DNA from: Chitinophagales bacterium
GTDB taxonomy: Bacteria; Bacteroidota; Bacteroidia; Chitinophagales; JADJOU01
Direction of reading: 5' to 3'
Length of the DNA: 64,000 bases
Assembly: GCA_030832185.1 (NCBI GenBank)
Contig: JAURJQ010000003.1
Coordinates: 1-64,000, forward strand
Numbering within the stretch: position 1 is the stretch's first letter; every line of letters begins with the position of its first letter. Both the position numbers and the translations under genes were made by a program. The notes below the pieces were generated by a model, which did no database searches, was not told the origin of the DNA, and saw only the letters and a list, made by a program, of their open reading frames with translations. Of the stretch, positions 34,453 to 52,840 are shown in pieces.

Positions 34453-34616
34453 CATTAACCTTAAAGAAATAAAGCTTAATAATTTAAATTGAACCTCAAA
34501 TTGAGTGAAATTGTATTTTAAGAGATTTAGGTTGGTTAAAATTGGATTGGTTTCTCCTAGTTTTGAGCTTCTTATTTTTATCCTAAATTAAATAAGTTCA
34601 ATTAGACCTATTTTCT

Positions 34617-34624
34617 TAGATTTG
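34617..34624 (+). promoter_or_regulatory. -7 box before nuoA
   Basis: TAGATTTG followed by C matches TAnnTTTG, 21 bases before the nuoA ATG. It should drive the complex I operon. The rest of the 225-base gap between DUF2752 and nuoA shows no gene. Confidence 0.5.
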
Positions 34625-34644
34625 CAGTTACAATTTTAGATAGA

Positions 34645-35001
34645 ATGAACTCTTATATTCCTATAATTTTAGCATCCATAGTATCCATTGGTTTTGTTCT
34701 TCTTACACTAGTAGGTACCCACTTTCTAGGCCCTAAGAGAAATTCAAAAGCAAAGAATGAATCATTTGAGTGTGGTATAGATAGTCAAGGGGATGCGCGC
34801 TTTCCTATTTCAGTTAAATATTTTCTTGTAGCTATATTATTCGTGCTTTTTGATGTGGAAGTGGTGTTTTTTTACCCTTATGCAGTCAATTTTTTGGATA
34901 TGGGCTGGCAAGGATTCTATGCGGTTCTAATATTCGTAGCCTTTTTCCTTTGCGGATTTTACTACGTGCTGAAGAAAGGAGTTTTAGATTGGAATAAGTA
35001 G
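34645..35001 (+). CDS. nuoA: NADH-quinone oxidoreductase subunit A
   Basis: A 118-residue inner membrane subunit with three helices. The conserved cytoplasmic loop KNESFECGIDSQGDARFPISVKYFLVA (key pieces FECG and RFPISVKYFL) and the second-helix acidic motif LFDVEVVFFYPYA define NuoA, which lies near the quinone-binding junction of complex I. It opens the operon. Its stop is 6 bases before the left inverted repeat of the IVS-like cassette that separates it from nuoB. Confidence 0.96.
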   Translation: MNSYIPIILASIVSIGFVLLTLVGTHFLGPKRNSKAKNESFECGIDSQGDARFPISVKYFLVAILFVLFDVEVVFFYPYAVNFLDMGWQGFYAVLIFVAFFLCGFYYVLKKGVLDWNK

Positions 35002-35006
35002 TTTAG

Positions 35007-35417
35007 GTATTAGGTACAAGGTATTAAGGATTAAAGATGCATCGGTTTGAAGATTTGAAAGTATGGCAAAATGCAATTCAATTAGTTAAGGAGGTTTATT
35101 TAATTTTACCGAATATGCCTAAAGAAGAAAAGTATGCGATTAGTGAACAAATAAGACGAAGTGCAGTTTCCATTCCTTCAAATATTGCAGAAGGTGCTGG
35201 AAGAAATAATAATGGGGAGTTTTATCATTTTGTGGGAATTGCGAATGCTTCTGCTAATGAGTTAATGACACAATAAATATTAATAAAGGAACTGGGTCTA
35301 ATAAATGGGTTCGATCCAAGCATGAAAATTGAAAATATAAAGTTAATTCAGAATATGATATACAAATTACAGTTAACATTAAAGAAATCATAATACATCA
35401 TACTTTGTACCTAATAC
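35007..35417 (+). mobile_element. IVS/S23-type cassette with terminal inverted repeats inserted between nuoA and nuoB
   Basis: An 18-base left end at 35007-35024 (GTATTAGGTACAAGGTAT) pairs with the right end at 35400-35417, 17 of 18 positions. The 411-base interval contains one S23/four-helix-bundle gene and nothing else. This is the plan of the intervening sequences found in 23S rRNA genes of many bacteria: an inverted-repeat stem enclosing a small bundle-protein gene. Here the cassette sits in an mRNA, between two complex I genes that are normally adjacent. Its RNA would fold into a long stem across the nuoA-nuoB junction. Confidence 0.75.
35037..35393 (+). pseudogene. S23 / four helix bundle protein (23S rRNA intervening-sequence type), interrupted by one stop
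   Basis: The first 79 codons encode a textbook S23 protein: FEDLKVWQNAIQLVKEVY, SEQIRRSAVSIPSNIAEGAG and GIANASANELMTQ. A TAA at 35274-35276 then stops translation. The same frame continues beyond with ILIKELGLINGFDPSMKIEN and MIYKLQLTLKKS to a second stop at 35391-35393. That second half is exactly the missing C-terminal helix region of the family, so the full gene would encode 118 residues, the normal size. A single substitution (for example TTA to TAA) explains it. The product is likely non-functional unless the stop is read through or is a sequencing error. Confidence 0.88.
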
Positions 35418-35426
35418 AATTATAAA

Positions 35427-35975
35427 ATGAACCAACTAGATAAAATAAAAATAGAGCAAATCGAATCTCATCAAGGAGAAGGGTTTATGCTAACTAAGTT
35501 TAGTGAAGCTATCGGATTGGCTCGCGCTAATTCTTTATGGCCATTGCCTTTTGCTACCTCATGTTGTGGTATCGAATTTATGAGTACTATGGGTCCTAAT
35601 TATGACTTGGCTCGTTTTGGATCCGAACGATTAAGTTTCTCTCCTCGTCAGGCAGACATGCTCATGGTAATGGGGACTATAGCTAAAAAAATGGGACCAA
35701 TACTTCGCAAAGTATATGAGCAAATGGCTGAACCAAGGTGGGTAATCGCTGTAGGAGCATGCGCTAGTAGTGGAGGAATTTTCGACACCTATTCTGTGCT
35801 TCAAGGTATCGATCGAGTAATACCCGTAGACGTCTACGTGCCGGGCTGTCCACCGAGACCAGAACAGATTATTGAAGGTGTGATTAAAATACAAGAGTTT
35901 GCAAGGTCTGAATCTGTGCGAAGAAGAGAGATGCCAGAATATCAAAAATTACTTGAATCCTATAATATAGATTAA
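35427..35975 (+). CDS. nuoB: NADH-quinone oxidoreductase subunit B
   Basis: NuoB carries iron-sulfur cluster N2, the last electron carrier before quinone. Its ligands are visible: tandem cysteines in ATSCCGIEFM, cysteine in AVGACASSGG and cysteine in VPGCPPRPEQI. The 182-residue length is normal. The ATG is 10 bases after the right inverted repeat of the IVS-like cassette, so the insertion left the gene and its start intact. nuoC follows 4 bases downstream. Confidence 0.97.
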   Translation: MNQLDKIKIEQIESHQGEGFMLTKFSEAIGLARANSLWPLPFATSCCGIEFMSTMGPNYDLARFGSERLSFSPRQADMLMVMGTIAKKMGPILRKVYEQMAEPRWVIAVGACASSGGIFDTYSVLQGIDRVIPVDVYVPGCPPRPEQIIEGVIKIQEFARSESVRRREMPEYQKLLESYNID

Positions 35976-44145: not shown

Positions 44146-44230
44146 TAATTAATACCATTCTCTAAGAATTTTAGAGTGCGCCATTAATTATTAGTTATTA
44201 ATTGTTAATTATCAATTATTAATTAAATTT

Positions 44231-45610: not shown

Positions 45611-45669
45611 AAAGTTCAAAGTCTTTTTGACTTTTGTCACTTAAGATTTGATTTTTGACTTTCAACTTT
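45611..45669. repeat. Imperfect inverted repeat between accC and fabI
   Basis: AAAGTTCAAAGTC (45611-45623) and GACTTTCAACTTT (45657-45669) pair at 12 of 13 positions. The right arm continues into a 15-base sequence (45658-45672) that recurs, reversed, at 52793-52807. It may be a terminator-like stem or a remnant of a dispersed element. Confidence 0.6.
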
Positions 45670-45691
45670 AAAACTTTAAACTAATATAGGT

Positions 45692-50142: not shown

Positions 50143-52785
50143 TTGAGAAAAATATTAGTAGGTATCCTCGTCATTATAATTGTTTTGATAGGCACAGTAG
50201 TTGCTATTCCATTTATTTTCAAAGATAAAATAGTGCAAGCGGCTAAAGATGCGGCTAATCAAGAATTGAATGCTATTCTCAATTTTGAGTCTATAGATGT
50301 TTCATTATTGCAAAATGTTAAGAACTTTCCTGATATTACACTAGTCGTTCATAATCCTTCTATATCAGGGATAGGACAGTTTGCTGGCGATACTTTGGTG
50401 AAAATGGAGGCCTTGAAATTAGCACTAGATATAAAATCAGTATTTCAAACAGAAAAACCAATGGCAATAAATGGCCTGGAGCTATTCAATGCCGATATCT
50501 ATGCCATAGTGGCTGCAGATAGCCAGACAAATTGGAATATAAGCAAAGAAACGGGCGAGAAAAAAGAGGAGTCTAAATTTTCAATGGCAATAGAAGAAAT
50601 CAAGTTGGATAATGTCAATATCATTTATAAAGACATACCAGCGAATAATTCTGCGAAATTATATGGGTTGAATCATAAGGCTAGCGGTAATTTCTCTAAT
50701 AATCTAGTGAACTATGCTAGTGAGACTAGTATTGAAGAGTTGAGTTATTTTAAAGGATTAGTTCCTTATCTGAAGAGTGTTAAACTAAAGAATGAATCTG
50801 TCATAGAATTAGACCAAGCCGCAATGAAGTATAAATTTAGTGACAATAAAATTCAGCTCAATGACCTAGAATTAAACGTGAATGGCTTCTTACAGCAGAT
50901 GGATAAAGACGCTATGAGTATGAGCCTCGATTTTAAAACTGAAAATAACGATTTTAAAAAAGTACTTTCTCTCATTCCTGCTATTTATAAAAATGATTTT
51001 AAAAGTATTGAAACTAAAGGACAATTTGATCTGAAGGGGAAAGTAGAAGGGCTCTATAGAGGTTCTGTTTATCCCAAAATGGATATAGTATTCAATGTCA
51101 ATAACGGAGGATTTCAATATCCCGATATACCGAAAAAAGTTTCCAATATTCAAATAGCATCAGCAATAAAAAGTCCAGGCGGTTCTATGGATAATATGAC
51201 GATAGATGTTTCAAAATTTTCGATGATTATTGGAAGCGACCCTTTTGAAGGAAGATTGAAAGTTAGTCAGCTTGTGTCAAATCCTCATTTGGAGCTCTAT
51301 TCGAAAGGTAAGATTAATCTTGGTGATGTCTTGAAATTTTACCCTTTGGAAGGAGTGAAAAAATTAGAAGGTTTGTTCCACCTCGATTTGGATTTAAATG
51401 CGAGAAAATCAGACCTGCAGTCAAAAAATTATTCGGCTATTCAAGCAGCTGGAACGGCTAGTGTGAAAGGCCTGGCTTATGAATCTTCGACAGTGGAAAA
51501 GCCTGTGCGAATTTCAGATTTAGTTCTCAATTTTTCTCCACAATTCGTAGATATGCCTGCCTGTGTAGGAAATATCGGTTCTACGGATTTTAATATCAAA
51601 GGTCGATTGGAAAATTTTATAGCCTACTACTTGTCAAAAGATGAAGTGATGCGAGGAAATTTAAATTTCACAAGTCAGAAAGTGGATATGAATGAATTTT
51701 CTTCGGATGATAAATCTGACAAAAAGGCTGAGTATATAATGGTTCCAAATAAAATTGATTTTACAGGAAATGCCACTATCGGTGAGATGCTTTATGGAAA
51801 AATGAATATAAAAAATATTGCAGGTTCTATGACGGTAAAGGAGGAGAAAATTACTTTGAACAATGTCAGAGCTGAATTGCTAGGAGGACTAGCAAAAATG
51901 TATGCAATCTATAGTACTGTAAGACAGACCAAACCTTTCACAGTTGTTCATTATGATATTGAATCGTTTGATATCAATCAGGTATATAACTATATGGAGA
52001 GTGCGCCTAAGCTTGCGCCGATTATGAAGTATATGACGGGTAAACTTTCTTCTAGTTCTAACCTAACCATGAATCTCCTACCTGATATGAGCCCAGACCT
52101 CAATACATTGAATGGAGATTTTACGGTGTCTATTCCCGTAGCAAAAGTGATAGATTTGCCTATATTACAGCAGATAGCGGGTGTGACGAAACTGAGTCAG
52201 CTCAATAACCTGGAGGCTACCAATATTAAAGCAAACATGTCTTTTGACAACGGTAGAATAGTACTTCAACCCACCAAGTTCAGAGCAAATAATCTCGATA
52301 TCAATCTGACAGGTTTTCAAGGACTGGATAAATCCATAGACTATAAAATGGGTTTAGATGTGCCATTTTCGCAGTTAGGCAATGCATCGAGTGTGGTCAC
52401 AGGATTAATTTCAAAATTTAAATTGCCATTTATTGGTATTTTTAATCCAGAAACTATAAGGCTAAATCTCAATGTAAAAGGATTTTTCGATAAACCTACT
52501 ATAACTCTAGGTGCGCCAGAAATATTGTCTGGGGGTAAGCCTACAGATGCGAAAGGTGCTGCGCTCGATGCAGCTAAGAAGGCAGGAGAAGATTTAAAAA
52601 ATCAAGCGTTAAAGACTGCGGATAGCATGAAGAATAAAGCTATTCAAGAAGCGAATAAAAAGCTAGATGAAGTGAAAAAAGAAGCAGAGAAAAAAGTAAA
52701 CGAAGCTAAGAAAAAAGCAGAGGAAGAGGTCAATAAAAAGAAAGATGAACTTTTGAATGAATTGAAGAAAAAACTGCCGTGGTAG
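50143..52785 (+). CDS. AsmA-family envelope protein
   Basis: An 880-residue protein with an N-terminal membrane helix (ILVGILVIIIVLIGTVVAIPF, residues 3-23) and a long beta-rich periplasmic body. The AsmA segment KIVQAAKDAANQELNAIL follows the helix, and the C-terminal domain (about 480-790) includes FDINQVYNYMES and LNNLEATNIKANMSFDNGR. A Lys/Ala/Glu coiled coil (about 800-880) is unusual. AsmA-like proteins bridge the envelope and may move phospholipids to the outer membrane. The start is TTG 50143. Whether it is AsmA, YhdP or TamB class is not settled; it is not a full TamB. Confidence 0.85.
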   Translation: MRKILVGILVIIIVLIGTVVAIPFIFKDKIVQAAKDAANQELNAILNFESIDVSLLQNVKNFPDITLVVHNPSISGIGQFAGDTLVKMEALKLALDIKSVFQTEKPMAINGLELFNADIYAIVAADSQTNWNISKETGEKKEESKFSMAIEEIKLDNVNIIYKDIPANNSAKLYGLNHKASGNFSNNLVNYASETSIEELSYFKGLVPYLKSVKLKNESVIELDQAAMKYKFSDNKIQLNDLELNVNGFLQQMDKDAMSMSLDFKTENNDFKKVLSLIPAIYKNDFKSIETKGQFDLKGKVEGLYRGSVYPKMDIVFNVNNGGFQYPDIPKKVSNIQIASAIKSPGGSMDNMTIDVSKFSMIIGSDPFEGRLKVSQLVSNPHLELYSKGKINLGDVLKFYPLEGVKKLEGLFHLDLDLNARKSDLQSKNYSAIQAAGTASVKGLAYESSTVEKPVRISDLVLNFSPQFVDMPACVGNIGSTDFNIKGRLENFIAYYLSKDEVMRGNLNFTSQKVDMNEFSSDDKSDKKAEYIMVPNKIDFTGNATIGEMLYGKMNIKNIAGSMTVKEEKITLNNVRAELLGGLAKMYAIYSTVRQTKPFTVVHYDIESFDINQVYNYMESAPKLAPIMKYMTGKLSSSSNLTMNLLPDMSPDLNTLNGDFTVSIPVAKVIDLPILQQIAGVTKLSQLNNLEATNIKANMSFDNGRIVLQPTKFRANNLDINLTGFQGLDKSIDYKMGLDVPFSQLGNASSVVTGLISKFKLPFIGIFNPETIRLNLNVKGFFDKPTITLGAPEILSGGKPTDAKGAALDAAKKAGEDLKNQALKTADSMKNKAIQEANKKLDEVKKEAEKKVNEAKKKAEEEVNKKKDELLNELKKKLPW

Positions 52786-52792
52786 AGAGTAG

Positions 52793-52807
52793 TTTAAAGT
52801 TGAAAGT
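52793..52807 (+). repeat. Dispersed 15-bp sequence, reversed copy of 45658-45672
   Basis: TTTAAAGTTGAAAGT occurs here and, as its reverse complement, at 45658-45672. The surrounding bases are A-rich repeats of GAAAGT. Common intergenic text of this kind occurs in Bacteroidota; its function is unknown. Confidence 0.55.
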
Positions 52808-52840
52808 GAAAAGTAGAAAGTAAAGTTGAAAGCTGCTGCC

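What the first reader, a model, noticed from the sequence alone, without database searches (positions are those of the whole stretch)
35007..35417. IVS/S23 cassette with terminal inverted repeats inserted between nuoA and nuoB
Seen: an 18-base left end and a right end that pair at 17 of 18 positions, enclosing exactly one S23 four-helix-bundle gene. Known: such pairs of inverted ends with an S23 gene are the intervening sequences inserted in 23S rRNA genes, and S23 genes are also found alone in genomes. Inference: the cassette is a small mobile or formerly mobile unit that can land in mRNA-coding operons. Its stem would form across the nuoA-nuoB junction and could be cut by RNase III, separating nuoA from the rest of the message.
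Basis: partly seen in the sequence, partly recalled or inferred. Interest (0 to 1): 0.85.

Follow-up and report, generated by a model that had tools for sequence, protein, structure and literature searches.

The report
Decayed S23 cassette with heptamer ends
Between two respiratory-enzyme genes sits a broken copy of a tiny one-gene mobile element whose mirrored ends are made of seven-letter repeats; the same kind of element turned up across many bacterial groups, inserted near stop codons inside operons, and may explain where some long-puzzling seven-letter repeats come from.

Summary
In detail: 35007-35417 has inverted ends (17/18; 27 nt at 85%) around one S23 (PF05635/TIGR02436) gene between nuoA and nuoB, far beyond chance. 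Correction: the gene is broken by an in-frame TAA (35274-35276). Close relatives carry an intact sister S23 with different ends (G001), a 3' remnant (G002), or no S23 (G003-G005).

The ends are inverted arrays of degenerate heptamers (GTATTAG...), and this is a general plan. Of 195 S23 loci from several phyla, 71% have a heptamer array in at least one flank, against 7% of control stretches. Left and right arms carry the same heptamer inverted, private to each element. Arms co-vary at orthologous sites, and intact S23 is under purifying selection (dN/dS 0.03-0.09). Cassettes lie inside core operons, 154 sense : 4 antisense. In cyanobacterial plasmids, filled/empty site pairs show precise insertion of about 400-430 bp near stop codons with a probable 5-bp target duplication. 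One 23S rRNA IVS (Coxiella) is published with tandem heptamers, but I found no paper linking S23 genes to heptamer repeats generally.

Best reading: a decayed S23/heptamer mobile cassette. RNA stem formation, S23 binding of heptamers, RNase III cutting and the mobility enzyme are inferred or unknown.

The parts
34645..35001 (+). nuoA, gene upstream of the cassette
   Evidence: PF00507 E 5.6e-33
35007..35033 (+). left arm: degenerate heptamers GTATTAG GTACAAG GTATTAA GGATTAA
   Evidence: inverted repeat I1; period-7 array 35001-35041
35037..35393 (+). S23 (four-helix-bundle, TIGR02436/PF05635) gene, 118 codons, interrupted by in-frame TAA at 35274-35276
   Evidence: sister of intact S23 in the same junction of G001
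35391..35417 (+). right arm, inverted copy of the left heptamers (reverse complement GTATTAG GTACAAA GTATGAT GTATTA)
   Evidence: array 35383-35417; right end also kept in the G002 remnant
35427..35975 (+). nuoB, gene downstream; its ATG lies 9 nt after the right arm
   Evidence: PF01058 E 1.5e-30

Best explanation
This is a decayed copy of an S23 cassette: a compact mobile element consisting of one S23 gene framed by inverted arrays of degenerate heptamers that are private to each element, inserted near a stop codon inside an operon. SHOWN (sequence evidence): the architecture, its recurrence across phyla, presence/absence at orthologous junctions, precise insertions with about 5-bp target duplications at two sites exactly and a third with one mismatch, strong purifying selection on intact S23, conservation and co-variation of the arms, sense orientation inside operons, and the nonsense mutation in this copy. 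INFERRED: in the operon transcript the arms pair into a stem enclosing the S23 reading frame; the S23 pentamer, which has the fold of the RNA-binding retroelement protein Avd, binds the heptamers of its own element; RNase III trims the stem as in rRNA IVSs. UNKNOWN: the enzyme that moves the element; S23 probably takes part but has no recognised catalytic motif. In this window full-length S23 can no longer be made, so what is left is a static insert that can form a stem just upstream of the nuoB start codon.
For: Period-7 autocorrelation in flanks of 115 S23 loci from the order: 0.379 up / 0.360 down vs 0.278 control; 80 further loci 0.377/0.378 vs 0.258, and 0.384/0.344 vs 0.270 in the 16 loci labelled non-Bacteroidota. 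An array in at least one arm in 138/195 loci vs 7.3% of controls; other lags give 3-7/195, lag 8 24/195. Left vs inverted right heptamer similarity 0.81 own vs 0.43 other loci; 76/92 above 0.7. Closely related S23s share heptamers (Mantel r 0.29, p 0.001), also at different sites (L125/L134: homology of 455 bp bounded by the arms). Same site but arms co-vary: own arms complement better than arms of orthologues at fadB-fadA, p 4e-9. Polymorphism: nuoA-nuoB, G034/G046, plasmid pairs L295/L300 at 98% flank identity and L306/L313. dN/dS 0.03-0.09 for intact orthologue pairs. Fold: S23 crystal structures 2gsc and 2rld; Avd 4dwl at TM 0.80.
Against: No transposition, transcript or binding data. No recent transposition within the window's own genus was caught. 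Long residence at some sites (33 loci at fadB-fadA) and purifying selection also fit an ordinary operon gene. 29% of loci show no array at the chosen threshold. Only a few target duplications could be read, all in cyanobacterial plasmids; none could be read in the window. The order-wide loci came from one search of close relatives plus one scan biased to S23s like this one, and taxon labels of single MAG contigs can be wrong.
Confidence: 0.8

Rival explanations
1. An ordinary, vertically inherited operon gene with a flanking regulatory hairpin (attenuator or processing signal), not a mobile element.
For: Purifying selection, conserved right arms (43/43 identical in L004/L072 despite dS 1.3), 33 loci at fadB-fadA, sense orientation 154:4; ordinary genes between co-directional neighbours are also mostly sense, 52:4.
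Against: Presence/absence between congeners and plasmids with precise junctions; related cassettes at different sites; the presence of a cassette with a different gene (GxxExxY) at the kynU-kmo junction in the sister genome.
Confidence: 0.12
2. The arms are mutational by-products: replication slippage makes the heptamers and template switching between arms keeps them matched, with no function in RNA.
For: Arm length differs by multiples of 7 (14 bp in L295 vs L304); arms stay matched while drifting.
Against: Does not explain why arrays flank S23 genes and rarely control stretches, nor why right arms are unchanged at sites with dS about 0.9-1.3.
Confidence: 0.2
3. A non-autonomous DNA element moved in trans by a host transposase such as a Y1/REP-type transposase.
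Against: The window's genome and 11 other S23-bearing genomes have no Y1_Tnp match; a passive element would not explain purifying selection on S23.
Confidence: 0.25
4. Retro-mobile element using a reverse transcriptase, as S23 shares the Avd fold of diversity-generating retroelements.
For: Fold and weak sequence similarity to Avd; sense orientation in operons.
Against: No RVT_1 in the window's genome and in 31 of 51 S23-bearing genomes; no RT gene noticed next to the cassettes, though this was not searched systematically.
Confidence: 0.15

Closest known systems
23S rRNA intervening sequence (IVS) with S23 ORF, e.g. Coxiella burnetii (PMC4990558)
   Same: Inverted ends enclosing one S23 gene, about 430 nt; tandem heptamers (GACAGAT) just upstream of the S23 ORF, varying in copy number between strains; S23 ORF prone to decay.
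   Different: Here the insert is in an mRNA operon between two protein genes, not in an rRNA helix; RNase III excision not shown.
S23 / 'four helix bundle protein' genes (PF05635, TIGR02436; structures 2gsc, 2rld)
   Same: The window gene and its relatives are members by profile and fold.
   Different: Described as stand-alone genes of unknown function; the heptamer-armed cassette and its insertion pattern were not found in the papers searched.
Intergenic heptanucleotide repeats (TAACTGA in Beggiatoaceae/Cyanobacteria/Bacteroidetes, PMC4679880; GGGAATC and GGGGATT in Xanthomonas/Nostoc, PMC4692102)
   Same: Tandem degenerate heptamers between genes, indels in steps of 7, some inverted pairs.
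   Different: Those papers do not mention S23 and propose no confirmed carrier; here heptamers are the ends of S23 cassettes.
Avd of diversity-generating retroelements (bAvd, 4dwl, 8ub7)
   Same: Same four-helix fold (TM 0.80).
   Different: About 10% sequence identity; below the Avd family cut-offs; no RT in the window's genome.

Membership tests
S23 protein family (PF05635/TIGR02436) | Profile match above curated cut-off | tested here: met
   103.7 bits vs 33.8 for the window copy; sister L056 119.4 vs 24
S23 protein family (PF05635/TIGR02436) | Four-helix bundle fold of solved S23 structures | tested here: met
   L056 model pLDDT 96.5; 2gsc TM 0.92
S23 protein family (PF05635/TIGR02436) | Intact reading frame in this copy | tested here: not met
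   TAA 35274-35276
rRNA intervening sequence (IVS) | Located inside a 23S or 16S rRNA gene | tested here: not met
   Lies between nuoA and nuoB; no Rfam match 34600-35600
rRNA intervening sequence (IVS) | Inverted ends enclosing an S23 gene | tested here: met
rRNA intervening sequence (IVS) | Excised from the transcript by RNase III without ligation | not testable with these tools
   no RNA data
Mobile element with terminal inverted repeats | Presence/absence at orthologous sites | tested here: met
   nuoA-nuoB; G034/G046; plasmids
Mobile element with terminal inverted repeats | Target site duplication of constant length | tested here: inconclusive
   GTAAT (L295/L300) and TTCTA (L306/L313), third site TAATG/TTATG with one mismatch; other pairs not readable; none in the window
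Mobile element with terminal inverted repeats | Encodes its transposase | tested here: inconclusive
   only S23, no known catalytic motif
DGR Avd | Match to Avd families above cut-off | tested here: not met
   24.3 vs 40 bits for the window copy (PF22296); 21.5 vs 80 for L056 (NF033474)

The most novel reading that the evidence does not exclude
S23 cassettes are a widespread class of mobile elements that insert near stop codons within operons; many of the heptanucleotide repeats of bacterial intergenic regions are their ends or S23-less derivatives, and the S23 pentamer recognises its own element's heptamers, one per subunit, in RNA or single-stranded DNA.
Probability: 0.4. Interest if true: 0.92.

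Novelty: new variant of a known kind. Interest (0 to 1): 0.8.

Why it matters
It would give a home and a testable function to S23, a protein family with solved structures but no known role, show that rRNA intervening sequences are one target of a broader mobile element, and offer a carrier for intergenic heptanucleotide repeats whose origin has been left open in the papers read here. It predicts a sequence-specific S23-heptamer interaction that one binding assay can test. The inserts sit inside core operons (fatty-acid oxidation, TCA cycle, respiration, CRISPR), so effects on expression of the downstream genes are plausible.

Tried and rejected
A whole-RNA fold of the cassette is not unusually stable (z -0.99); only the arms taken alone are (-25.7 kcal/mol, z -6.6, with an artificial G-rich loop in place of the gene). 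A survey of heptamer arrays without S23 in 20-kb samples was underpowered in AT-rich genomes (G050 shows an excess, G000 and G013 do not), so the claim that such arrays track S23 content stays open. A reverse transcriptase or Y1 transposase as a needed local partner is not supported: none in the window's genome. Orientation bias alone is weak evidence, because ordinary operon genes show it too. S23 was not found in phage records. No Rfam family matches the cassette region. A first, broader alignment could not be used as a collection query.

Full report
Observation. The window holds nuoA (34645-35001), then a 27-nt arm (35007-35033), an S23 gene, the inverted arm (35391-35417) and nuoB from 35427. 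The outer 18 bases match at 17 positions. No resampled pair of 5000 reaches the score, and only the cassette does so in a scan of the window. The gene is broken: TAA at 35274-35276 after 79 codons, frame reopening to 35391-35393.

Relatives at the same junction. Among genomes of the same genus, G001 has an intact S23 between nuoA and nuoB with different ends (ATATGAG-type heptamers); G002, whose NuoB is 98% identical, keeps only the 3' part and right end of the window's version; G003, G004 and the family member G005 have short spacers without S23. The S23s of G000 and G001 are sisters (support 100/96), so the simplest reading is one old insertion, both arms changing together, and decay in the G000/G002 line. 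dN/dS of this pair is 0.17, against 0.03-0.09 for intact orthologous pairs.

The ends are heptamer arrays. GTATTAG GTACAAG GTATTAA is a degenerate 7-mer array. Across 115 S23 loci of the order the flanks have period 7, 14, 21, 28; control stretches about 1 kb away do not. A scan of genome contigs gave 80 named loci, labelled Bacteroidota, Ignavibacteria, Desulfobacterota, Proteobacteria, Acidobacteria, Akkermansia, Clostridia, Selenomonadales and Cyanobacteria, with the same signal. In the joint set of 195, 138 have an array in at least one arm against 7.3% of controls, while lags 5, 6, 9, 10 and 11 give 3-7 and lag 8 gives 24; the left heptamer equals the inverted right heptamer within a locus (similarity 0.81) and not between loci (0.43); related S23s share heptamers. 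Arms pair with their own partner much better than with others, also among the 33 loci at one orthologous site (fadB-fadA; p 4e-9 by sequence, 2e-5 by RNA duplex energy).

Mobility. Two copies in G050 (83% protein identity) lie at different sites, with homology of 455 bp ending at the arms. G034 and G046 (same genus) differ at three sites tested: S23 vs an S23-less heptamer hairpin, S23 vs no cassette, and S23 vs a GxxExxY gene with its own inverted ends. S23 cassettes on cyanobacterial plasmids have nearly perfect heptamer arms. Trichormus plasmid C (filled, L295) against a Tolypothrix plasmid (empty, L300) at 98% flank identity reads AAAAAGTAAT|cassette|GTAATTAACAAA vs AAAAAGTAATTAACAAA, a 5-bp duplication over the upstream stop codon. 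Scytonema has the same insert with a left arm shorter by 14 bp, and a Nostoc plasmid has a remnant. L306 against the other plasmid of the same strain (L313) gives TTCTA; a third junction in L313 gives TAATG/TTATG. The L306 cassette is 78-81% identical in DNA to cassettes at other sites, over only about 418 bp. Other filled/empty pairs (nrdB-nrdA, integrase gene, cas6-cas4) are polymorphic but their edges could not be read cleanly.

Where they land. In 154 of 158 loci whose neighbours share a strand the S23 is sense. This excludes orientation-blind insertion without selection, but ordinary operon genes behave similarly (52:4). Sites include fadB-fadA (33 loci), fadA-acyl-CoA dehydrogenase (11), sucB-lpd, sdhA-sdhB, mutA-mutB, paaA-paaB and murE-mraY; these names were read by eye from the neighbour proteins.

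Function. S23 is kept by purifying selection and right arms stay identical where synonymous sites are near saturation. The predicted fold matches solved S23 structures and Avd, the RNA-bound partner of DGR reverse transcriptase; the Coxiella paper describes the solved S23 as a homopentamer ring. I infer, with about 0.35 confidence, that S23 binds its own heptamer arms in the transcript. RNase III excision is known for IVSs in rRNA (PMC4990558) and is only assumed here. The mobility enzyme is unknown: neither RVT_1 nor Y1_Tnp is found in the window's genome.

Prior knowledge. In the open-access library searched, only the Coxiella IVS paper joins S23 and heptamers, noting heptamers of variable number before the ORF. 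The heptanucleotide-repeat papers do not mention S23, and one leaves open whether the repeats are spread by a mobile element. Subscription literature and preprints were not searchable, so novelty is provisional.

Noticed in passing
L251 880-1580 (rc) and L258-L287: A second cassette type: GxxExxY genes (PF13366/TIGR04256) flanked by inverted CACAAAG/CGCAGAG-type arms; own-arm score 16.2 vs 10.2 for other loci, 6 of 30 above the 99th percentile; orientation 14 sense: 4 antisense.
   Followed up: partly
window 44179-44230, 45639-45686, 52787-52832: Period-7 arrays without S23: in the spacers that flank accC (accB- and fabI-like neighbours, named from sequence by eye) and after the gene ending at 52785; possible S23-less relatives of the cassette. 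Only the first folds better than shuffled sequence (z -2.8).
   Followed up: partly
L292, L297: S23 cassettes between cas6 and cas4 of CRISPR loci on Anabaena and Pseudanabaena plasmids; a 99% identical Dolichospermum locus lacks S23.
   Followed up: partly
L290 1370-1900: A rare antisense S23 cassette between nrdB and nrdA on a Nostoc plasmid, with (A)GGGAGT arrays; the Calothrix NIES-4105 counterpart lacks it.
   Followed up: partly
L040, L041, L044, L046-L048 and 27 other loci: S23 at the fadB-fadA junction in many Bacteroidota families: apparently long-term residence with drifting heptamers that stay matched between arms.
   Followed up: partly
L303 490-800: At the Nostoc plasmid site that holds S23 in C052, strain ATCC 53789 has heptamer-like arms without an S23 gene.
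   Followed up: no
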